This document shows positions 1-10,959 of a stretch of DNA of 64,000 nt, one piece after another; position 1 is the stretch's first letter, and the number at the start of each line of letters is the position of its first letter. The notes beneath the pieces were generated by a model, which had not been told where the DNA came from, ran no database searches, and was given only the letters and a program-made list of their open reading frames with translations. This DNA comes from Puteibacter caeruleilacunae (GTDB lineage Bacteria; Bacteroidota; Bacteroidia; Bacteroidales; Prolixibacteraceae): NCBI GenBank assembly GCA_005217565.1, contig SJCO01000006.1, positions 294,388 through 358,387 on the forward strand, written 5' to 3'. Position numbers and translations under genes: made by a program.

Positions 1-255
1 AACCATCCTGTTCGTTATTACAGGTCGTGAATAGATCCACCACCATAGTATTGCCCATGCAAGGAAACAACCTATTGATGTATATATAGAGAGTTGTGGT
101 CTACTGATACCTTGAACCGTAACGATGGTATCAACATTAAAAAATATCACTGCAGCAAGCCATAGTCCTGGCCTGCTATATTTCCGATTATCTGGTGCAG
201 GCAATAATCCTGCGAGCTTGTAGAATCTGTAGAGTATGTAGTAAAGTGGTTTCAT
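1..255 (-). CDS. Small membrane protein, partial (3' end outside window)
   Basis: Reading the minus strand from an ATG at 255 gives 85 codons with no stop before the window edge, so the C-terminus is missing. The N-terminus is basic and aromatic (MKPLYYILYRFYKL). Two hydrophobic stretches follow, at about residues 31-50 and 59-78, the second very rich in tryptophan (AILWWWIYS). I do not recognise the family. The start lies 11 nt after the stop of the upstream HNH nuclease gene and on the same strand, so it is probably the third gene of that operon. A membrane partner beside nucleases would fit a defence cassette, but that is inference. Confidence 0.65.
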   Translation of the reverse strand, partial: MKPLYYILYRFYKLAGLLPAPDNRKYSRPGLWLAAVIFFNVDTIVTVQGISRPQLSIYTSIGCFLAWAILWWWIYSRPVITNRMV

Positions 256-266
256 TGTAATAAGAA

Positions 267-1226
267 TTAAAAGCCAAAGCTTGTTCGATGATGTTTTAGT
301 TTTTCCAATGAAGGATAAAATCGATCATCAGAAGGTAATAATATTTGTTTGTTCGAATATTGCTCAATACCTACATCTGGATTGTAGTCTTTCATTCGTT
401 TGCTTATAACTACTCGATAGTTGTCATCAATAGCAATAAGTCCTCTGTCAAAAGCTCTATGAAGAGTTGGCGAAAGTGCAATACCATTGGTGATTGAACA
501 GTCATAAGTTTCTGCATAAGGAATGATATGGCAAGCATCTATTATAGAAGTATTATTGAATTCCACTTTCATTTTGCTTATTGTACAGGTATTTTTGTAT
601 TGTTCCAAGACTGCCTTACGAAAGATATGGCCTCGAACGAACTGTTCTTCTATCCATGTGTTGTCTTTTTTATTTCTTGGATTATGCTTTGCTGTGCGTA
701 CGTAGTTTTCGTTAGGCTCATATAGAATTGATTGCCTAATTTGCTCAGAGTAAGGTGTTGAGATTGTTAATAACTTAGTTGAGGCTTCTGGGAAATATTT
801 TTCTAAGATGGCTGATTTTAATTGCTCTCTAGAGTCGCGTGATAGCAATGAATAGAAAAGATCATCTGACAAATGAGCGGCAAAAACAGACTCCTTAAGG
901 GCTTTAAAACTTTTAATGGAATTACTCTTTGTTTGCGGAATGATTTGCCCGAATTTGGGTTGTAATTGCCAAATTTCAGACCTTTCATTTCTCAAATGAA
1001 AGAATGGCAACGCAAAATTAGGATCATGTCCTGTATGAACCAGTAGTCTCCAATGATCGTGAAAACTTGTAACCAATTCCTCAGTAATAGTAATGGAGTT
1101 TCGAAAGAAATATCCTTTCTCAAAACAATCAATTACAGCAAGCAAAAGTATAGGCTTATGTGGAGCCTTACCATACTTTGTAGTTCCTTGCCGGAGTGAT
1201 GTTATATGATCTACAATTTGTTGCAA
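267..1226 (-). CDS. HNH endonuclease with N-terminal sulfur-binding-like (ScoMcrA-type) domain
   Basis: A 319-residue protein in two parts. The N-terminal ~100 residues carry APHKPILLL (about 21-29) and later LPFFHLRN...IWQL (73-88). This spacing and wording resemble the sulfur-binding domain of ScoMcrA-type restriction enzymes that read phosphorothioate DNA (family knowledge; not tested here). The C-terminal part is an HNH_2-type nuclease: Cys214, then ACHIIPYA with His233, Asn247 in NGIALSP, and His256 in LHRAFDRG. It starts 11 nt after the preceding HNH gene and is followed after 11 nt by a membrane-protein gene, so the three probably form an operon. No Dnd or Ssp modification genes are in the window, so a role in restricting modified foreign DNA is an inference. 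Confidence 0.85.
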   Translation of the reverse strand: MQQIVDHITSLRQGTTKYGKAPHKPILLLAVIDCFEKGYFFRNSITITEELVTSFHDHWRLLVHTGHDPNFALPFFHLRNERSEIWQLQPKFGQIIPQTKSNSIKSFKALKESVFAAHLSDDLFYSLLSRDSREQLKSAILEKYFPEASTKLLTISTPYSEQIRQSILYEPNENYVRTAKHNPRNKKDNTWIEEQFVRGHIFRKAVLEQYKNTCTISKMKVEFNNTSIIDACHIIPYAETYDCSITNGIALSPTLHRAFDRGLIAIDDNYRVVISKRMKDYNPDVGIEQYSNKQILLPSDDRFYPSLEKLKHHRTSFGF

Positions 1227-1237
1227 GTTGGATTAAA

Positions 1238-2026
1238 TTATGCTTGTATTAACTCTGCTCTATGGCATTTAAGAAACTCCTGTCCTGGCAGATATTTATT
1301 GGGTGTTGATAACTGTTTACCTTCGAATTGGACAAACCATTGGTTGTAATATTCTTTGGTTTCGTTTTCTTTTAACTGAGGCGAAAGAATTAGTCGGTAG
1401 TCTTCATCAAATGAAATTAGATATTTGTCGAATGCAGTATCAAAATGAGTAGACAGACAAATACCATTTTCTGGATTTAGACGATGCTCTTGCGACTTGC
1501 TCCAGGGAATGATGTGACTTGCTACCAAAAGTTGAGAAACATCGATACCACTAATAGCGCATTTACTGTCATAGTTCGCCAATATCATTTTGCGAAAGAA
1601 ATTTTGATTGACACGAGTTTTAACGTATCTCTGACGCTCTTCACCCACCATATTGTTTAGTTCTGGCAGGATTGTTGAAAACTTATCTTCAATGGAAACC
1701 TCTTGTTGCTGTGCAATGCAGGTTTCACTTTGAAACGCTAGTGTTTCACGATCCTCATAAAACCTTTCAAATATCTCCTTATCCGCCTTAGAGGCATTTT
1801 TTAGTCCTTTGATACCCCGGGCTTTTAATTCTGGATCAAAACTTGCGAAGTTTGAAAGTTTCAGTGCAACTGCATTGGGAGATCTATTGATTAAAGTTGC
1901 AAGTGTTATAATATCAGGATTTCGATGGTGTATCTTACCAAATGGGATTTTACAATACAAGTTGAATGCGATGATCAGTTCATCATCACTCCAGTTGCGT
2001 CTTTTGACAGTTGTTCGTTCACTCAT
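1238..2026 (-). CDS. HNH endonuclease
   Basis: A 262-residue protein starting at MSERTTVKRRNW. An open frame runs 28 codons further upstream, but those residues look non-coding and this start matches the usual family N-terminus. Residues 10-75 are a conserved N-terminal module (NWSDDELIIAFNLYCKIPFG, then RSPNAVALKLSNF) that looks like a helix-turn-helix-type DNA contact region. The C-terminal HNH_2 domain has Cys156, SHIIPWS with His171, NGICLS with Asn187, and His194 in HFDTAFDK, so all catalytic positions are present. Such proteins are common in defence islands and mobile regions of Bacteroidota. It is the first gene of the minus-strand operon with the second HNH nuclease. Its real target is unknown. 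Confidence 0.85.
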   Translation of the reverse strand: MSERTTVKRRNWSDDELIIAFNLYCKIPFGKIHHRNPDIITLATLINRSPNAVALKLSNFASFDPELKARGIKGLKNASKADKEIFERFYEDRETLAFQSETCIAQQQEVSIEDKFSTILPELNNMVGEERQRYVKTRVNQNFFRKMILANYDSKCAISGIDVSQLLVASHIIPWSKSQEHRLNPENGICLSTHFDTAFDKYLISFDEDYRLILSPQLKENETKEYYNQWFVQFEGKQLSTPNKYLPGQEFLKCHRAELIQA

Positions 2027-2207
2027 TGGGGGCAAATGTTTACAGTAGCCTAAAAGTATCCAATTTATATTCAATTTCCAAGTCTTCAGCGTGAGAATAT
2101 TCGCATTCATAGGGGATTGCAGGAGTTCAGTCTCTTGAAATTATGTTGTTTTTTGAACAAGAATGATACGTAATTCATGTCCTAATCTAACGATCTCTTG
2201 CCCTCCT

Positions 2208-2414
2208 TGATGTATGACCACTTACGCCACTCCTACGGCGCTCTTACGGCCCAACTACGGCATTATGGCGTAAAAGCCCCGTATTTATTGTGTAAGAGTA
2301 GCGTAAAGGCGTAAGAAAAGAGACCCCTAAAGGGTTCTATTGGGATGTAAACTGTTATGAAATTGTGGAAATGAATGGAATGATGGATTGTTATAAGGTT
2401 TAAATGTAGTCAAT
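2208..2414. repeat. Non-coding dyad element, copy 1
   Basis: This stretch of about 207 bp has a diverged relative at 2505-2710. Both begin TGA(T/G)GTATGACC, share the core GTAAAAGCCC(C/T)GTATTT (here 2270-2286), continue with CTATGAAAT/TTATGAAAT and end near (G)TAGTCAAT/(G)TAATCAAT. The left half of copy 1 forms an imperfect hairpin: CTTACGCC at 2221-2228 pairs with GGCGTAAG at 2308-2315, with further pairing of CTCTTAC with GTAAGAG inside. No reading frame is convincing. It may be a decayed miniature mobile element or a structured repeat. Confidence 0.5.
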
Positions 2415-2504
2415 ATTCATGAGGTTTGACATAACTGTATGAGTGTATTTTGCAGGCTATTTTGCTTTAGTTGAAGTACTATTTCAGTAACCTCTGGCTA
2501 ACCC

Positions 2505-2710
2505 TGAGGTATGACCTCTTTCTGCCCTTTTACTGGACACTTACTAGACACTTACTACATTAGGTGGTAAAAGCCCTGTATTTGTAGGGTAGTTGTAGTG
2601 TAGAGTAGTAAAAAAAGGGGTGGATCGTGGATTACTTTGGGCATATAATAGCTATGAAATGGTGGGGTGGATGGTATGGTGGATTGTTGTTATGTCTAAA
2701 GGTAATCAAT
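2505..2710. repeat. Non-coding dyad element, copy 2
   Basis: Diverged second copy of the element at 2208-2414. The shared core GTAAAAGCCCTGTATTT lies at 2567-2583. The flanking arms differ in sequence from copy 1 yet can still pair: TTTTACT at 2528-2534 with AGTAAAA at 2607-2613. Keeping the dyad while changing the bases suggests that the fold matters, but two copies alone cannot prove it. No gene lies within it. Confidence 0.5.
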
Positions 2711-2833
2711 AATTGTTAGGATTGCAATGTGGTCGCTGATTCTGATGTTAGCTCTCTTTTAAACTCAGTAGATTATAAAACAGAAATGATGAAGTATGGT
2801 CACTGTAGAGCACTTTACGTTGGAATTAGGCAT

Positions 2834-2862
2834 AAAAAAAGAGGTTGGCGAGTACCAACCTC
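2834..2862 (-). terminator. Rho-independent terminator, probably for valS
   Basis: A perfect 8-bp stem (GAGGTTGG at 2841-2848, CCAACCTC at 2855-2862) with a 6-nt loop is followed on the minus strand by seven T residues (A run at 2834-2840). It lies 255 bp beyond the valS stop codon, so it ends either a long valS 3' region or a separate small RNA. Confidence 0.75.
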
Positions 2863-2880
2863 CGATCATTCCTTTGAGTG

Positions 2881-3031
2881 AAAAAAAAACGGGTGACTTC
2901 CCTTCCACTAAGCTTCAAATACTAAACCACAAACCATAAATTAACCAATCTATGAAATAATTACCGCATTATTGTATTAACCAGATCTAAAAAAAAAACG
3001 CTTAGCTTTCAACTTCACAATCTGTCACCCG
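2881..3031 (-). ncRNA. Candidate structured RNA downstream of valS
   Basis: On the minus strand CGGGTGAC (complement of 3024-3031) can pair with GTCACCCG (complement of 2890-2897), which is followed by nine T residues, like the closing stem and tail of a small RNA of about 140 nt. A second nested pair joins CTAAGC and GCTTAG (3000-3005 with 2908-2913), and a small hairpin (AATAAT/ATTATT) lies near the middle. This rod-like layout recalls 6S-type RNAs, but I recognise no conserved 6S sequence. A run of ten T residues inside the molecule argues against it. It could also be only the 3' region of the valS transcript. Confidence 0.25.
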
Positions 3032-3116
3032 CCGGTATTTTCAATATCTTAAGATAGTAATTCTATCTAACTTTCAGGCGGTAAAGTTAATTAAAATTTT
3101 TCCGCCACAAAATTTA

Positions 3117-5750
3117 TTAGCCTTTTAAACTGTTAATTCTTTCTTCCAACATTTTGATTTTCAACTCAGCATCGGCTTGTTTGTTACGTTCTATGGTAAC
3201 AACCTTCTCTGGAGCATTCTGTACAAAACGTTCGTTACTTAGCTTCTTCATTACGCTATTCAAGAATCCTTGAGTGTATTTTAACTCCTCTTCAAGCTTT
3301 TTTAGCTCTTCTTCAGGATCAATTAAATCATTCAATGGTACGTAGAATTCTGAAGCCTTAACACGGAATGAAATAGCACCCTTAACTTCTTCATTTACAA
3401 GAGAAATAGAAGAAAGGTTACCCATTTTCTTTAACACTTCGTTAAATTCTTCAAAATAAGAACCTTCTGCCGCGTGAATCATTAGTTCAATTTGATCACG
3501 GTTAGGAATATTCTTGTCTTTACGAATCTTACGAAGTCCAGAGATGGTCTCTTTTAAAGATTCAAAGTTATTAACAAGTGCTGTGTTAGCATCGTTAGCA
3601 GCTGGCCATTCAGCAACCATGATACTTTCGCCATCTTTACGTTCTTCAAGCATTTGCCACAACTCTTCAGTAATAAATGGCATGAATGGGTGAAGAAGTC
3701 TCAATACCTGATCGAATAGGTTAATTACTTCATCGTAGGTCTTTTTGTCGATAGGCTTCTGGTACTCAGGCTTAACAATTTCAAGTAACCATGATGAGAA
3801 TTCATCGCGAACAGCAGTATAAACTGTCATCAATGCATCTGAAATACGGAATTTATCGAAGTGATCGTTCATGGTAGCTGTAATTTCTTTCAGCTTCTCA
3901 GTGAACCACTCAATACCGATGCGTGCATGCTCAGGTTGAGGTATGTTTGCATCAACTTCCCAGTTTTTAACCAATCGGAAGGCATTCCATATCTTAGCCG
4001 AGAAGTTACGTCCTTGCTCAGGTAAACTCTCATCAAATAATAAGTCTCCTCCTGCAGGCGAGCAGAATAGCATACCAATACGAACGCCATCAGCACCGTA
4101 AATCTTCATCAAATCGATTGGGTCTGGTGAGTTACCAAGCTGCTTCGACATCTTGCGTCCTTGCTTGTCGCGCACCATTCCGGTGAAGTAAACATTCTTA
4201 AATGGGAACTGCTGGCGGTACTCATATCCAGTGATAATCATACGTGCAATCCAGAAGAAGATAATATCGTGACCAGTAATAAGGTCGTTTGTTGGGTAGT
4301 AATATTCTACCTCTTTGTTATCAGGATTACGAACTCCGTCGAATACTGAGATAGGCCACAACCATGAAGAGAACCAAGTATCTAATACGTCCTCGTCTTG
4401 GCGTAATGCATCCATTGTAAGATTTGCATCTCCTGTAAGCTTGCGAGCTTCTTCTAATGCAGCAGCATCGTTCTCAGCAACAACAAATTTTCCGTTGTCA
4501 AGGTAGTATACCGGAATACGGTGTCCCCACCAAAGCTGACGTGAAATACACCAGTCTTTAATGTTACCCATCCAGTGGCGGTATACATTCTTGAATTTCG
4601 CAGGGTGGAATTGGATATTATCGTTCATTACATTTTCCAATGCTGGCTTCACCAACTCTTCCATCTTCAGGAACCACTGTGTTGAAAGCTTAGGCTCAAT
4701 AACAACATCAGTTCTTTCTGAATATCCTACTTTATTTGTATAGTCTTCAATCTTCGCTACGTTACCTGCTTTGTCTAAGTCGGCAACAATTACGTCACGT
4801 ACCTCGAAACGATCTTGTCCTACGTAAAGCTGAGCTTTTTCGTTTAGTGTACCTTCATCAGTAAAGATGTCGATGCTTTCAAGGTTATGAGTAATACCGA
4901 TTTCGTAGTCATGAATATCGTGAGCCGGAGTAATTTTCAAACAACCGGTACCAAATTCCATATCTACATATTCGTCCTCGATAATAGGGATAGAACGGTT
5001 GATCAATGGTACTAACACGCGCTTTCCTTTCAGGTGTTGGAAACGCTCGTCGTTAGGATTGATACAAACGGCAGTATCACCTAAGATAGTTTCAGGACGA
5101 GTTGTTGCGATAGTAACAAATTCATTGTCGCTACCTTCGATCATGTACTTCAGGTAGTATAATTTCGACTGTACTTCTTTATAGATTACCTCTTCGTCAG
5201 ATACAGCTGTCTTTGCACTAGGATCCCAGTTTACCATACGTACACCGCGGTAAATTAGTCCTTTGTTATGCAGGTCGACAAATGTTTTGATAACCGACTC
5301 AGAACGGGCTTCGTCCATGGTGAAACAAGTACGATCCCAGTCGCACGAAGCACCAAGCTTTTTCAGCTGCTCAAGGATAATACCTCCGTGCTTGTGTGTC
5401 CATTCCCATGCGTGGTTAAGGAACTCGTCGCGAGAAAGGTCATATTTGTCGATTCCTTCGTTCTTAAGTTTATTAACAACTTTAGCCTCAGTAGCAATGG
5501 AAGCATGGTCGGTACCTGGCACCCAGCAAGCGTTCATGCCTAACATACGTGCACGTCTGACCAGAATATCCTGAATAGTATTGTTCAACATGTGTCCCAT
5601 GTGTAACACTCCGGTTACGTTTGGTGGTGGGATTACAATTGTATAAGGAGTTCTTTCATCTGGCTCAGAGTGAAAAAAACCTTTGTCCATCCAATACTTA
5701 TACCATTTGTCTTCGACTAACTCAGGATTATATTTGCTTGGTATATCCAT
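3117..5750 (-). CDS. valS: Valine--tRNA ligase
   Basis: Cytoplasmic class I aminoacyl-tRNA synthetase of 877 residues that charges tRNA-Val with valine and edits misactivated threonine. The N-terminus has the ATP-binding signature [13 protein letters not shown] (HIGH variant HMGH, residues 50-53). The second signature, [14 protein letters not shown] (KMSKS variant KMSKQ), is at about residue 530. The editing domain lies between, with [12 protein letters not shown]. The C-terminal ~65 residues are rich in Glu and Lys, as expected for the ValS coiled-coil arm. Length is normal. It stands alone on the minus strand, with a possible -7 element about 45 bp upstream and a terminator 255 bp downstream. 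Confidence 0.98.
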
Positions 5751-6268: not shown

Positions 6269-7402
6269 ATGAAGAGATTAATTGTATTTCTTATTGGGGC
6301 TATGGGCCTAACCAGTTTATGTAACGCACAGCAGACAAGTATCCCTGTAATTGATAAGGAGAAAAAGTATCCAGAGAAGGAGTTTTTAGTAGATACAGAA
6401 AAGAAGTTTGTTCAACTTGAAACAAGAGACGATGTTCTGATTGATCGGGATGCTCATGTATATTATGTTTCGGATGAGCGGATATTGATTGCAAACAAAA
6501 TTAAAGGCGATGTCTTCATCTTTGATATGAATGGTAAATGCTTATCTAATTTTAATCAAAAAGGAGGCTATGGGTACAAGTATCTTGGGCATGCAATGTA
6601 TGATGAGAAGCAGAAAGAGATCTATATACTGGATGCAATAAATAGTAATATCCTGGTATTTGAGGAGGATGGAACGCTTAAGCGAACGTTGCGTAAACCT
6701 AAGGGTTTATCGCTTAAAGAGATTTATAATTTCGATGAGAATACTTTATTGGGTTTTCATGAGTATGGATATGGAGAGCTAAAGGTGAAACAACCATATT
6801 TCTTTATTTCTAAAAAATCTGGAGAGTTGCTTTCACATGTGGATTATACAATGAATAAGGCTAATCCACGAATTATTCAGAATGGAGAATCTGTTGTTGT
6901 GGTCGTGAATAATTATTCGGGTAGCTGCAAATTTGGTGATCAGTTTGTTCTGTCTAATTTATCGAGTGATACCATTTATGTTTTGAATAAGGATAAATCG
7001 TTGAAACCATTATTAATTCAAAAGCCAACAGTCTTTAATGATCCTCCGGTGATTACTTCCATTGGAATGCTTACTGATGAATTTATTTGCCTTTGCACTT
7101 ATCCTTTTAATCTAAAAGCTGCAAGAAAGAGAGTGAATGATGGCGACGGACCAAATCTTCAGACGGGTGCTAAATTCTTTATTTACGAGTTTAAGACAGG
7201 TGAAATTTATGAACAGAAAAATAGAGAGTATTGGGCTGAAAAGATTGATATTCATCAAAATATGTATGTTGAGAAAATGGATTGCTGGCTCTTGAAGCAT
7301 AGGTTGGAGCAAGGGCGGTTGGAAGGTGAGTTGAAGAAAATTGCGGAGAAAATCGATATTAATAACAACCCGGTAATTATTGTTGGTAAGATCAAAAAAT
7401 AG
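6269..7402 (+). CDS. 6-bladed beta-propeller protein, exported
   Basis: A 377-residue protein with a signal peptide (MKRLIVFLIGAMGLTSLCNA, cleavage about residue 20). The body reads as repeated propeller blades: VFIFDMNGKCL, KEIYILDAINSNILVFEEDG, then FFISKKSGELLSHVDY. This matches the 6-bladed beta-propeller family common in Bacteroidota envelopes. There are no catalytic motifs, and such proteins are usually of unknown role in the periplasm or on the outer surface. It stands alone, with a 10-bp inverted repeat directly before the start and a strong hairpin 10 bp after the stop. Confidence 0.75.
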   Translation: MKRLIVFLIGAMGLTSLCNAQQTSIPVIDKEKKYPEKEFLVDTEKKFVQLETRDDVLIDRDAHVYYVSDERILIANKIKGDVFIFDMNGKCLSNFNQKGGYGYKYLGHAMYDEKQKEIYILDAINSNILVFEEDGTLKRTLRKPKGLSLKEIYNFDENTLLGFHEYGYGELKVKQPYFFISKKSGELLSHVDYTMNKANPRIIQNGESVVVVVNNYSGSCKFGDQFVLSNLSSDTIYVLNKDKSLKPLLIQKPTVFNDPPVITSIGMLTDEFICLCTYPFNLKAARKRVNDGDGPNLQTGAKFFIYEFKTGEIYEQKNREYWAEKIDIHQNMYVEKMDCWLLKHRLEQGRLEGELKKIAEKIDINNNPVIIVGKIKK

Positions 7403-7411
7403 GAAATAAAA

Positions 7412-7438
7412 AAGGTGCTTCTGCTGTTGAAGCACCTT
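7412..7438. terminator. Terminator between convergent genes
   Basis: Perfect 10-bp stem AAGGTGCTTC/GAAGCACCTT with a 7-nt loop. There is an A run before it and a T-rich stretch after it, so it can serve the propeller gene and the convergent lipoprotein gene. Confidence 0.7.
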
Positions 7439-7486
7439 ATTTGGTTTCTGCCTTTTAGCAGAATGGTCAAAAATGTATAGGTTGTA

Positions 7487-8218
7487 CTACTGCTCAGGGT
7501 TCCAAACAACTTCCTGAGTCGTAATTGAGATACACTGAATGTTATACGACCAGTTTGCGTTTGTAGCCTCATCGTCAAATAAGTAAGCTCTTAAATGGAT
7601 AGTGTAAGTTTTTCCATTTTCAGCTTTGGTTGGTTTTGTCCAGCCTGATGAGGTTAAACCAAATGCGTAGTCTTCTGCCTTGTCGTTCAATGCAGGTCCG
7701 TTGAATACAATGTCACCATCTTCATCAACCATTTTGATGTTGTAGGCATCAGCATCAGCTACTTTGTCCCACTCTAATTCCATCATGCTTGATGTTCCAT
7801 CATATTCTGCTCTTGTAATTACTGGAAGATCAATTTCATCATCAGTAAGCTCGTCAACACTTGTTAGTTGCTCTTGGCCTACGTTTGTTCCTTTGAATGT
7901 GTAGTTTCCAACAGCAGGAATATCCTCTACGTATTGTTCTGCTTTTGTTTTGTTCCAGAATGCAGTTGTGTTCTCGTAGAATTTTTCCAAAGTTTCTTCT
8001 CCTGTTGGAGTAGTAACTGTTGCTGCTGACATTGTTTCGTTTGCATAAATGATGTTTACAGCTGCATACTTAGTTGTTCCTTCAACGTCCATTTTTTTCA
8101 TGTACGCATCACCAATAACCTCGAATGGATAATCGTCATCATCATCACATGATGTAAACATTGTACCACATAAACCAAATGCCAATAGTGCTAATGAGAA
8201 TAATTTACTTCGCTTCAT
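7487..8218 (-). CDS. Lipoprotein of unknown function
   Basis: A 243-residue protein with a lipoprotein signal: a basic start, a hydrophobic core and the lipobox FTSC at about residues 21-24. The lipid-anchored Cys is followed by a run of aspartates (CDDDDD), which in Bacteroidota often accompanies export to the outer membrane or cell surface. The mature part is acidic and mixed. A stretch from about residue 130 (VITRAEYDGTSSMMELEW) looks like a fibronectin-type strand pattern. I recognise no enzyme motif. It stands alone between two convergent terminators. Confidence 0.7.
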   Translation of the reverse strand: MKRSKLFSLALLAFGLCGTMFTSCDDDDDYPFEVIGDAYMKKMDVEGTTKYAAVNIIYANETMSAATVTTPTGEETLEKFYENTTAFWNKTKAEQYVEDIPAVGNYTFKGTNVGQEQLTSVDELTDDEIDLPVITRAEYDGTSSMMELEWDKVADADAYNIKMVDEDGDIVFNGPALNDKAEDYAFGLTSSGWTKPTKAENGKTYTIHLRAYLFDDEATNANWSYNIQCISITTQEVVWNPEQ

Positions 8219-8340
8219 CTTAATAAGTATTTCTATCGTTTTAATATTTTTTTATTGTCTCTTTTTTTGCGGTCAACCGGAGGTATGATGAAGAAAAGTT
8301 GAAAAGGTTGCTTCGGAAATGAAAAAAAAGTGAAAAAAAT

Positions 8341-8368
8341 AAAAAAGCCACTTCGGAATGAAGTGGCT
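8341..8368 (-). terminator. ald: Terminator of ald
   Basis: Stem AGCCACTTC/GAAGTGGCT with a 5-nt loop is followed on the minus strand by T6, A and a further T run. It lies 30 bp beyond the ald stop codon. Confidence 0.8.
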
Positions 8369-8398
8369 AGCTGATCTTTTAAGGTAGTATAAAATAGT

Positions 8399-9511
8399 CT
8401 ATAAAATTTCTTCTACAGGTGTATATTCAAGATCGAATGCTTCGGCAACGCCTTTGTAAACAACTTTTCCGTCTACAACATTTAATCCTAATTTCAATGC
8501 CTCATCATCCTGACAAGCTTGTTTCCATCCTTTTCCTGCAAGGTCAATTGCATAACGCAATGTTGCGTTTGTTAGCGCAATTGTTGAAGTCTGAGGTACG
8601 GCTCCTGGCATGTTTGCAACAGAATAATGAATTACTTCATCGATCTCAAAGATAGGATCATCATGAGTAGTTGGTCTTGTAGTCTCAATACATCCACCCT
8701 GATCGATTGCTACGTCTACCAATACTGTTCCTGGCTTCATTGTTTTCAACATGTCGCGAGTAATCAATGCTGGTGCTTTTGCTCCAGGAATTAATACTGC
8801 TCCGATGATCAAATCGTGTGTTTGAACCATCTCACGAATATTGTACTCGTTCGACATCATCGTCTTAACGTTTGCAGGCATTACATCATCCAGGTAACGT
8901 AGACGTGGTAAGCTTAGATCCATGATTGTAACATCAGCTCCTAATCCGGCTGCCATCTTAGCTGCTTCGGTTCCAACGATACCTCCACCAATGATTAGTA
9001 CTTTTGCAGGAGGTACTCCAGGTACTCCACCTAACAATACTCCGCGTCCACCAAATGTTCTTTCCAAGTATTTAGCTCCTTCAAGTGCCGACATACGACC
9101 TGCTACCTCTGACATAGGAATCAACAATGGTAAGCTGCGGTCTTTCAACTCTACAGTCTCGTATGCTAAACAGATCGCTTTGCTGTCGATCATTGCCTTT
9201 GTTAATGGCTCATGTGAAGCAAAATGGAAATAAGTGTATAGGATCTGACCTTCGCGAATAAGCTTGTATTCTGGCTCAATAGGTTCTTTTACTTTGATGA
9301 TCATTTCTGCAGTTGCATAAGTATCTTCTATGGTAGGAAGAATCTTTGCTCCAGCCTCTACATACATCTCATCAGGAAATCCACTACCTACTCCGGCAGT
9401 TGCCTGCACGTATACATCGTGTCCTCTCTTTACAAGTTCGGCTGCTCCTGCAGGAGTTAGCGCAACTCGGTTCTCGTTGTTTTTTATTTCTTTGGGTACA
9501 CCAATAATCAT
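8399..9511 (-). CDS. ald: Alanine dehydrogenase
   Basis: NAD-dependent oxidative deamination of L-alanine to pyruvate and ammonium, or the reverse. At 370 residues it has normal family length. The N-terminus MIIGVPKEIKNNENRVALTP is the typical alanine dehydrogenase/PNT start and holds the pyruvate-contacting Arg15. The Rossmann motif GGGIVGTEAAKMAAGLGADV lies at about 175-195, and the C-terminal part contains the conserved SVANMPGAVPQTSTIALTNA. It is cytoplasmic and monocistronic: a clear phylum-type promoter lies about 30 bp upstream and a terminator follows. Confidence 0.97.
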   Translation of the reverse strand: MIIGVPKEIKNNENRVALTPAGAAELVKRGHDVYVQATAGVGSGFPDEMYVEAGAKILPTIEDTYATAEMIIKVKEPIEPEYKLIREGQILYTYFHFASHEPLTKAMIDSKAICLAYETVELKDRSLPLLIPMSEVAGRMSALEGAKYLERTFGGRGVLLGGVPGVPPAKVLIIGGGIVGTEAAKMAAGLGADVTIMDLSLPRLRYLDDVMPANVKTMMSNEYNIREMVQTHDLIIGAVLIPGAKAPALITRDMLKTMKPGTVLVDVAIDQGGCIETTRPTTHDDPIFEIDEVIHYSVANMPGAVPQTSTIALTNATLRYAIDLAGKGWKQACQDDEALKLGLNVVDGKVVYKGVAEAFDLEYTPVEEIL

Positions 9512-9540
9512 GACGCTAATTTTTAAATTTAGTTATGGTC

Positions 9541-9569
9541 CAAATATATCGCAAAAGCGGAAGTGCAAA
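9541..9569 (-). promoter_or_regulatory. ald: Promoter of ald
   Basis: On the minus strand TTTG (complement of 9566-9569) and TATATTTG (complement of 9541-9548) are 17 nt apart. This matches the Bacteroidota -33/-7 pattern with a slightly short spacer. Transcription would start about 20-25 nt before the ATG at 9511. Confidence 0.6.
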
Positions 9570-9759
9570 ACATGATAAAAGGCATGAATTATAGGTGGTA
9601 CAGTATGTTGTAGAGCATCCCTAATCCTGCTTTTTATCAGCATCTTTCGATTTCTTCTTTTAAGATAATAAGAAATTTAAAACTGTTTTTTATTTGGCAG
9701 TAAAAATTTAAATCTGATATTACTATATTTACCAGCTTTAGATAAAAAATTAAGAAATT

Positions 9760-10959
9760 ATGCCATCAGTATCGAAACGTGGGGAGATTATGCCGGAATC
9801 ACCAATCCGGAAACTTGTTCCGTTTGCAAATCAAGCAAAGGAGCAAGGTAAGACAGTTTATCATCTGAACATTGGCCAGCCTGACTTGCCAACTCCTGAT
9901 GAAGCACTCGCCGCCATTCGTAACATTGATCGTAAGATTCTTGAATATAGCCCGAGTGAAGGAAATCGTAGTTTCAGAGAGAAACTGGCAAAGTATTACC
10001 ATAAGTTCAAGATTGATGTCGACGTTGAAGATATCATCGTAACAACAGGTGGTAGTGAGGCTATTACTTTTGCGATGTTGGCTTGCCTTGATCCAGGTGA
10101 TGAAATTATTGTTCCAGAACCTGCTTATGCTAACTATACTGCATTTGCAATTATTGCTGGAGCTGTTGTTAAGTCTATTCCATCAAGAATTGAGGATGGA
10201 TTTGCTTTACCTCCGGTTGAGGAGTTCGAAAAGCTGATCACTGAAAAGACCAAGGGGATTTTGATTTGTAATCCAAATAATCCTACAGGATATCTTTATA
10301 CAAGATCGGAAATGAAGAAGATTAGAGATTTGGTGAAGAAATATGATCTTTACTTGTTCTCAGATGAGGTGTATCGTGAGTTTTGTTACTCAGGAGCTCC
10401 TTATATTTCAGCATTTCACCTGAAAGGGATTGAGAATAATGTAGTACTTGTTGATTCTGTTTCGAAGCGTTATAGCGAATGTGGAATTCGTATTGGAGCT
10501 TTGGTGATTAAGAACAAGCAGGTGCGTGAGAATGTATTGAAGCTTTGTCAGGCTCGTTTGAGTCCGCCTTTAATCGGACAGCTGGCTGCAGAAGCATCTC
10601 TTGATACTAGTCAGGATTACCTGTTGAACGTATATGATGAATACCTTGAGCGCCGTAAATTTTTGGTTGACGGTTTGAATCGTATAGAGGGGGTTTATTC
10701 TCCAATTCCAATGGGAGCGTTTTATACAGTAGCGAAATTGCCTGTCGATAATGCCGATGATTTCTGTAAATGGTTGTTGTCAGATTTCGATTATGAAGGA
10801 CAGACAATCTTTATGGCTCCTGCTTCTGGTTTCTACACTACTCCAGGGTTGGGGAAAAATGAGGTGCGTATTGCCTATGTGTTGAAGAAGGAGCATTTGG
10901 CTATCTCATTGAAAATTCTTGAAAAAGCATTAGAGGTTTATCCTGGAAGAACGGTTTAA
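9760..10959 (+). CDS. Pyridoxal phosphate-dependent aminotransferase, class I/II
   Basis: A 399-residue fold-type I aminotransferase of the aspartate/aromatic AspC-like group. Visible signatures: NIGQPDLPTP near the N-terminus (substrate loop), TTGGSEAI (cofactor phosphate), CNPNNPTGYLYT at about 171-182 with the conserved Asn, SDEVYREF (Asp and Tyr contacting the cofactor), DSVSKRYSECGIRIG at about 231-245 with the Schiff-base lysine, and a C-terminal Arg region (NEVRIAY). The substrate cannot be told from sequence alone; aspartate/2-oxoglutarate is the common assignment. It stands alone, and the gene ends before a strong bidirectional terminator shared with recQ. Confidence 0.9.
   Translation: MPSVSKRGEIMPESPIRKLVPFANQAKEQGKTVYHLNIGQPDLPTPDEALAAIRNIDRKILEYSPSEGNRSFREKLAKYYHKFKIDVDVEDIIVTTGGSEAITFAMLACLDPGDEIIVPEPAYANYTAFAIIAGAVVKSIPSRIEDGFALPPVEEFEKLITEKTKGILICNPNNPTGYLYTRSEMKKIRDLVKKYDLYLFSDEVYREFCYSGAPYISAFHLKGIENNVVLVDSVSKRYSECGIRIGALVIKNKQVRENVLKLCQARLSPPLIGQLAAEASLDTSQDYLLNVYDEYLERRKFLVDGLNRIEGVYSPIPMGAFYTVAKLPVDNADDFCKWLLSDFDYEGQTIFMAPASGFYTTPGLGKNEVRIAYVLKKEHLAISLKILEKALEVYPGRTV

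What the first reader, a model, noticed from the sequence alone, without database searches (positions are those of the whole stretch)
1..2026. HNH/HNH/membrane-protein operon with a phosphorothioate-reader-like nuclease
Three minus-strand genes lie 11 nt apart: two complete HNH nucleases and a membrane protein that leaves the window. The second nuclease has an N-terminal module (APHKPILLL and LPFFHLRN...IWQL) that looks like the sulfur-binding domain of ScoMcrA-type restriction enzymes, and its HNH catalytic residues are intact. The two nucleases share a C-terminal architecture (FRK..., CHIIP/SHIIPW, FDKG/AFD) but have different readers. A two-reader cassette plus a membrane partner could be a defence unit. 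The sequence shows the genes; the target and the defence role are inference.
Basis: partly seen in the sequence, partly recalled or inferred. Interest (0 to 1): 0.6.

Follow-up and report, generated by a model that had tools for sequence, protein, structure and literature searches.

The report
Sulfur-reading DNA-cutting enzyme beside another
The window edge holds a well-supported member of a known class of bacterial enzymes that bind sulfur-tagged DNA and probably cut it, next to a second DNA cutter with a different reader part; the neighbouring genes are not a conserved set, so the proposed joint defence unit is not shown.

Summary
The genes are real. Gene 267-1226(-) is an SBD-HNH protein: residues 1-148 fold like the sulfur-binding domain SBDHga (Z 18.4, rmsd 1.9, 142 residues), the sulfur-pocket residues His, Lys and Pro are invariant in 81 of 81 aligned family members, and the catalytic H-N-H is present. 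No DndC or SspD-like writer was found in the host genome. The sulfur-reader guess is supported; PT-dependent cleavage is inferred. Gene 1238-2026(-) is a separate HNH_2 nuclease; at least 4 of 18 examined relatives stand near a C5 methylase, but this genome has none. The three-gene order is not conserved: of 295 genomes of the order 7 have the SBD-HNH and 23 the companion, and only the window's own has both. The membrane gene has no relative in that sample. Still, another HNH nuclease is the immediate downstream neighbour of SBD-HNH in 6 of 80 loci (4 of one genus) and was found nowhere else in about 1 Mb of flank; partner and orientation change. In passing: a related SBD-HNH lineage sits tightly behind dndC, where dndD is cut or missing. 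Verdict: new member of a known kind.

The parts
267..1226 (-). SBD-HNH nuclease, 319 aa (TTG start): predicted phosphorothioate-dependent type IV restriction endonuclease
783..1226 (-). sulfur-binding domain, residues 1-148
   Evidence: VIA-align Z 18.4 to 8h0l_B, 12.2 to ScoMcrA SBD 5zmo
1152..1163 (-). sulfur-pocket stretch P22 H23 K24 P25 (H23 and K24 equivalent to H116 and R117 of ScoMcrA)
   Evidence: P22, H23, K24 in 81 of 81, P25 in 76 of 81; ScoMcrA pocket from passages of PMC6224610
1005..1007 (-). pocket-floor proline P74 (equivalent to ScoMcrA P165)
   Evidence: 81 of 81
426..635 (-). HNH catalytic core, about residues 198-267, with H233, N247, H256
   Evidence: HNH_2 214-267; Z 15.1 to TagI 6ghs over 194-319; conservation
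1238..2026 (-). companion HNH_2 nuclease, 262 aa, with an N-terminal helical (HTH-like, my reading) module instead of an SBD
   Evidence: (PADLOC PDLC04132 8.6e-95)
1..255 (-). first 85 of 118 codons of a small membrane protein; the rest lies left of the window (L002:9899-10255). Probably not part of a conserved unit

Best explanation
The 267-1226 gene encodes an SBD-HNH type IV restriction endonuclease: the N-terminal sulfur-binding domain takes up the sulfur of Rp-phosphorothioated DNA in a His/Lys/Pro pocket and the C-terminal HNH domain, joined by a helical linker, cuts nearby. It protects a host that has no phosphorothioate writer against incoming PT-marked DNA (dnd-carrying plasmids or elements, phage grown in dnd hosts). 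The 1238-2026 gene is a second, independent HNH nuclease with another DNA reader; the two lie together by local stacking of nuclease genes, not as an obligate complex, and the membrane genes are incidental. Shown: domains, fold, pocket, catalytic residues, no DndC and no SspD-like gene found in the host, gene order not conserved in the samples. Inferred: PT binding and cutting, target sequence, defence role, co-transcription, function of the companion.
For: SBD by sequence (8h0l 1.4e-8; NF045808 residues 4-315, 4.4e-26) and by fold (model pLDDT 93.8; 8h0l_B Z 18.4, rmsd 1.9, 142 aligned; 5zmo_A Z 12.2, rmsd 3.3, 145 aligned; TagI HNH Z 15.1, rmsd 2.0, 111 aligned). Pocket H, K, P in 81 of 81; changes at the ScoMcrA equivalents abolish or reduce PT-DNA binding (PMC6224610, passages). 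H-N-H in place. No DndC match in the own genome; the only SspD-model match (23.6 bits) is a gene that I read by eye as CysD, beside CysH. The closest relative L060 follows a Gabija pair (GajB 586 bits); other relatives adjoin defence genes. The two nuclease families are distributed separately in the order.
Against: The NF045808 score is half its curated cut-off. Two pocket positions differ from ScoMcrA (Y164 to Leu, A168 to His; 8h0l also has Leu and His there, alignment), so sequence preference cannot be read off. No CxxC zinc finger as described for EcoWI relatives. Family members also stand directly behind dndC (10 of 80 named loci and G537), which a pure anti-PT enzyme should avoid, though dndD is missing or cut there. 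One genome, G080, has dndC, a full-length dndD and an unbroken SBD-HNH. BrxP of BREX type 4 was not searched for separately in the own genome. The defence-neighbour counts have no control set.
Confidence: 0.72

Rival explanations
1. The two HNH proteins are one unit: two readers, one for phosphorothioate and one for another mark or sequence, whose HNH domains pair into a heterodimer that cuts only when both are engaged.
For: 11-nt spacing on one strand; homologous C-terminal domains; in 80 SBD-HNH loci every other HNH_2-like gene that my profile found (6) is the immediate downstream neighbour, abutting or overlapping it (about -11 to +15 nt between gene ends), and none was found elsewhere in about 1 Mb of flank; companion-type partner in 4 Rufibacter loci, and a companion fragment at the contig end near SBD-HNH in Cesiribacter L068, with transposase-like genes between; other HNH neighbours in L014, L015, L016, L034.
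Against: Partner family and orientation change (5 of the 6 convergent); 4 of the 6 are one genus; the closest relatives L060 and L061 have no HNH partner; only the own genome of 295 has both families (chance overlap of the others would be about 0.5 genome, so this shows non-conservation, not avoidance).
Confidence: 0.12
2. The SBD-like domain has lost sulfur specificity and the enzyme cuts unmodified or otherwise modified DNA.
For: Y164 and A168 equivalents are Leu and His; NF045808 below cut-off; relatives behind dndC.
Against: H, K and P of the pocket in 81 of 81; the same Leu-Pro...His pattern in 8h0l, solved with PT-DNA. No methylase gene seen in the flanking ORFs.
Confidence: 0.12
3. Three- or four-gene operon with a membrane partner that senses infection and triggers the nucleases.
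For: Spacing 11, 11 and 7 nt to two small hydrophobic proteins; a relative of the fourth gene stands behind what reads as an HNH gene and an adenine methylase in G575 (by eye, L318).
Against: The membrane gene has no relative in 294 other genomes of the order, no Pfam or PADLOC match and no match in the 80 named loci; the fourth gene has relatives in 2 of 294, neither with an SBD-HNH or companion gene in the stretch held around it.
Confidence: 0.04

Closest known systems
EcoWI, SprMcrA, Bsp305I and other SBD-HNH PT-dependent endonucleases (PMC7461809, passages read)
   Same: N-terminal SBD with a KPzzLL...PF..L...W motif, C-terminal HNH, no SRA; no dnd writer found in the host
   Different: NF045808 below cut-off; no CxxC zinc finger; specificity unknown; beside a second HNH gene
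SBDHga, PDB 8h0l
   Same: Best sequence and fold match; Leu-Pro in the pocket floor and His after it (LPYYHL vs LPFFHL)
   Different: 25-26% identity; only the domain is in the PDB entry
ScoMcrA (PMC6224610, passages read)
   Same: SBD fold and H/K(R)/P pocket
   Different: ScoMcrA has a head and an SRA domain; Y164 and A168 are replaced here
TagI and VcaM4I HNH domains (6ghs, 6yex)
   Same: HNH fold (Z 15.1 and 12.0); 6yex is the best PDB sequence match of the companion (8.1e-15)
   Different: Other reader domains (SRA in TagI, passage of PMC10853773; that of VcaM4I recalled)
HNH_2 genes of C5-methylase / GHKL / Response_reg_2 restriction operons (PMC8011034, passages read)
   Same: Companion-family genes stand in such operons: methylase, HATPase and response-regulator-like genes by Pfam in L164 (the regulator just under its cut-off); L170 and L172 by eye
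   Different: No such genes seen beside the window copy, and no PF00145 match in its genome

Membership tests
SBD-HNH type IV (PT-dependent) endonucleases | Sulfur-binding-domain fold at the N terminus | tested here: met
   8h0l_B Z 18.4, 5zmo_A Z 12.2, 7cc9_B Z 11.6, against 7.0 for the first row that is not an SBD or HNH entry
SBD-HNH type IV (PT-dependent) endonucleases | Sulfur-pocket residues His, Arg/Lys, Pro | tested here: met
   H23, K24, P74; 81 of 81
SBD-HNH type IV (PT-dependent) endonucleases | HNH domain with catalytic His, Asn and third His | tested here: met
   H233, N247, H256; N247 and H256 lie in the pattern by which L060-L139 were found, so their conservation there is partly by selection
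SBD-HNH type IV (PT-dependent) endonucleases | Cleaves PT-DNA, not unmodified DNA | not testable with these tools
   needs biochemistry
SBD-HNH type IV (PT-dependent) endonucleases | No PT writer of the same specificity in the host | tested here: met
   No DndC match; SspD model hits only a CysD-like gene; BrxP not searched separately
NCBIfam NF045808 PT-DNA_restrict | Score over the curated cut-off of 180 bits | tested here: not met
   91.7 bits; relatives L060, L061, L078 score 82.5-90.9
EcoWI subgroup | CxxC and CxxH potential zinc finger in the HNH domain (PMC7461809) | tested here: not met
   no CxxC in residues 198-319 (sequence)
Conserved HNH/SBD-HNH/membrane defence cassette | Gene order kept in relatives | tested here: not met
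Type II restriction enzyme with C5 methylase (companion) | Cognate C5 methylase beside it or in the genome | tested here: not met
   none seen in the flanking ORFs; no PF00145 match in the own genome; other methylase types were not searched genome-wide

The most novel reading that the evidence does not exclude
SBD-HNH nucleases of Bacteroidota are modular readers that dock on a changing second component: another HNH nuclease with a different reader (the window, Rufibacter, L014/L015 and others), or DndC in place of the writer's motor DndD. In the window the two HNH proteins would then act together, sensing two different DNA marks.
Probability: 0.12. Interest if true: 0.6.

Novelty: new member of a known kind. 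Interest (0 to 1): 0.32.

Why it matters
It adds a divergent Bacteroidota branch, below the NCBI cut-off, to the phosphorothioate readers, with a testable pocket; the annotation threshold may be too strict for this phylum. The recurrent HNH-HNH adjacency and the dndC-linked branch raise a question that can be tested at once: how a phosphorothioate reader nuclease and phosphorothioate writer genes share a locus.

Tried and rejected
The companion's structure model (7 sequences) was too weak in its HNH part (block means of pLDDT 41-58 in residues 151-200) for a useful fold search: 18 rows, none at E 0.001 or better, the only sensible one TagI at prob 0.54. Phage or plasmid origin: in phage records 6 match, all over the HNH part only; on plasmids 32 records match, 15 over at least 80% of the query; in viral contigs 20 loci, the best at 38%. 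So the family is sometimes mobile, but nothing ties the window copy to an element. Empty-site idea: none of 19 relatives' valS loci (1.5 kb flanks) holds any of the four genes or the two left neighbours, which only says that the site is not shared. Papers: searches with dnd, HNH and SBD words listed no title on SBD-HNH inside dnd operons; of the listed papers I read passages only: PMC7461809, PMC10853773, PMC6224610, PMC7470945, PMC12707154 and, for the companion, PMC8011034. PMC10853773 tells of a three-domain wHTH(SBD)-SAD-HNH protein near Dnd genes. Searches for the SBDHga paper did not find it. The viral scan with the companion alignment gave mostly HNH-only matches; only L191 and L192 were used.

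Rows dropped: L029 (companion family, not SBD), L026/L030 (one broken gene in two rows) and L028 (64-residue remnant) are not counted as intact SBD-HNH loci. For the companion's neighbours 18 of the 22 non-own loci of the order were fetched with larger flanks; L044, L045, L051 and L052 were not. The neighbour scan took 132 of 145 nearest ORFs (13 left out for length over 700 aa or distance over 1.5 kb). The SBD-HNH queries used E 1e-15, the companion query E 1e-30.

Full report
What is there. The window lies in contig C184 of a genome of 8.0 Mb in 220 contigs. On the minus strand lie 1238-2026 (262 aa; an upstream ATG would give 290), 267-1226 (319 aa, TTG) and 1-255, which continues to 118 aa outside. 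A fourth minus-strand gene of 138 aa, also hydrophobic, follows after 7 nt. A plus-strand gene (L002:7755-9305) stands on the left and the valS gene about 1 kb to the right (valS named by eye).

The 267-1226 protein. Pfam sees HNH_2 (residues 214-267). NCBIfam's phosphorothioated-DNA-binding endonuclease model aligns to residues 4-315 with 91.7 bits (cut-off 180). PDB 8h0l, the sulfur-binding domain of Hga with PT-DNA, matches residues 19-149 (1.4e-8), and residues 19-94 when only the first 109 residues are used (2.6e-5). AlphaFold gives mean pLDDT 93.8 with 45 sequences. VIA-align puts 8h0l_B at Z 18.4 (rmsd 1.9, 142 residues), the ScoMcrA SBD at 12.2 and the SprMcrA SBD at 11.6, against 7.0 for the first other fold, a winged-helix part of ORC; TagI's HNH domain aligns to 194-319 at Z 15.1. 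By the published ScoMcrA pocket (PMC6224610, passages) the equivalents of H116, R117 and P165 are H23, K24 and P74; each is found in 81 of 81 sequences. The Y164 position is Leu in 66 of 81 and the A168 position His in 70 of 81, as in the window. The paper says that R117 is Lys in most homologs and that Y164 is kept in only a subset.

Writer. The own genome has no DndC match. The SspD model gives 23.6 bits to a gene that reads as CysD beside CysH. Of 31 genomes searched (the own and 30 matched by the SBD-HNH query) 4 have DndC. In two of these four the SBD-HNH is a 64-residue remnant (G099) or carries a stop (G549); in G537 it adjoins dndC; in G080 both are unbroken and apart. Four genomes are too few for a statistic.

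The 1238-2026 protein. It is HNH_2 (1.1e-13) and a strong match of the PADLOC model PDLC04132 (8.6e-95). Its best PDB match is VcaM4I (6yex, 8.1e-15). Residues 14-63 are modelled as three helices with block pLDDT 85-93, the HNH part poorly; 'HTH-like' is my reading. Of 18 order relatives with larger flanks, C5 methylases (PF00145) were confirmed by Pfam within three genes in L161, L164, L171 (fragment) and L175, and a D12 methylase in L173; L170 was read by eye as a C5 methylase. In the others no methylase was noticed among the three nearest ORFs on each side, but they were not scanned. L164 also has HATPase and response-regulator-like genes, like the operons of PMC8011034 (passages). The window's genome has no PF00145 match, so this copy is an orphan; whether it is modification-dependent is open.

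Is it a unit? In 295 genomes of the order, SBD-HNH was found in 7 and the companion in 23; only the own genome has both. In the phylum draw 25 of 395 genomes matched (one of these, L029, is companion-type), and no locus but the own has the companion beside SBD-HNH within 1.5 kb. Of the best 80 named loci, the companion type adjoins SBD-HNH in 4, all Rufibacter and convergent; a fragment at the contig end lies in Cesiribacter L068, with transposase-like genes between. A home-made HNH profile found other HNH_2-like genes in 6 of 80 loci, always the next gene downstream (gene ends about -11 to +15 nt apart), five convergent and one on the same strand, and none elsewhere in about 1 Mb of flank. 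Four more SBD-HNH loci of the order and phylum draws have an HNH neighbour (L014, L015, L016, L034); in L014 and L015 it is by eye a second SBD-like HNH protein (HNH_2 confirmed in L014 and L034). So the adjacency is not random, but partner and orientation change. I read it as stacking of nucleases in defence islands; a functional pair is not excluded.

Membrane genes. The first has no relative in 294 other genomes of the order and no Pfam or PADLOC match. The second has relatives in 2; one stands behind what reads as an HNH gene and an adenine methylase. This is thin.

Defence context in relatives. The nearest relative (L060, 53-54%) follows an OLD-like gene and GajB (586 bits) with two small genes between. 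L062 adjoins PDC-S36. Of 132 nearest neighbours (of 145), scanned as one set, 10 match DndC, 5 HNH_2, 5 Phage_integrase, 3 GmrSD_N, and single ones HamA, Cap4 and DpnI. Only the 25 commonest families were shown and no control set was run.

A dndC-linked branch, seen in passing. Eleven of the 80 loci hold dndC: ten directly before SBD-HNH, while in L118 dndC is cut by the contig end and other genes lie between. G537 makes twelve. In the eleven direct cases the junction is tight, -26 to +26 nt by the first possible start codon (and, for G537; L066's dndC carries a stop; those of L086, L091 and L123 are shortened). On a quick tree (SH-aLRT only) all 11 named ones lie within one set of 21 rows (support 93), 11 of 21 inside and 0 of 60 outside, though the label needs 7 changes; the window lies apart with L060 and L061 (99). 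Full-length dndD stands at 0 of the 12 loci: no trace at 8 (of which L065, L074 and L118 hold only 1.3, 0.4 and 0.4 kb behind SBD-HNH), a C-terminal piece directly behind SBD-HNH at 4. Of the 12 genomes 11 were held (not L086's). Their best DndD matches are 149, 145, 106 and 103 bits for the C-terminal pieces and 63 bits for an N-terminal piece on another contig of G693, the rest about 30 or less or none; G080 (full length) has 189 bits, G099 (656 codons open, with a stop in the tail) 240, and the own genome's background is 25; none reaches the curated cut-off of 246. DndE-like ATPase genes follow in L070, L078 and L095 (36-45 bits, under cut-off). PMC7461809 reports dnd clusters beside less than 3.6% of its SBD-HNH homologs (passage); here it is 10 of 80 of a non-random set. 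The tight junction argues for a kept dndC/SBD-HNH pair, the cut dndD for a dead writer; both need a census.

Score. The window finding is a solid, slightly divergent member of a known kind, with an unproven partner.

Noticed in passing
L065, L066, L070, L074, L076, L078, L086, L091, L095, L123 (named genomes), L178 (G537); L118 less directly: SBD-HNH genes directly behind dndC, with dndD untraced or reduced to a C-terminal piece right behind SBD-HNH (L070, L076, L078, L091); the named ones fall in one 21-row set of the tree.
   Followed up: partly
L277 (G099), about 6665-10263: Reverse picture: dndC and a nearly full-length dndD with an SBD-HNH remnant of 64 residues just upstream.
   Followed up: partly
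L014 and L015: Two different SBD-HNH-like genes in tandem; by eye the second has NKP (L014) or HKP (L015) and YPFWHL pocket motifs.
   Followed up: no
L060:3521-8963: OLD-like (GajA-like) and GajB genes, two small genes and SBD-HNH in one tight run in the nearest relative.
   Followed up: partly
L164, L170, L172: Companion-type HNH genes at the end of operons with a GHKL ATPase and a response-regulator-like gene; Pfam-tested in L164 with a C5 methylase, by eye in L170 and L172.
   Followed up: partly
window 2110-3117: About 1 kb without a clear gene between the companion and valS, with two stretches of similar wording near 2216-2340 and 2510-2620 (by eye).
   Followed up: no
L002:9475-9891: Fourth minus-strand gene, 138 aa, hydrophobic; relative in G575 behind HNH- and methylase-like genes.
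   Followed up: partly
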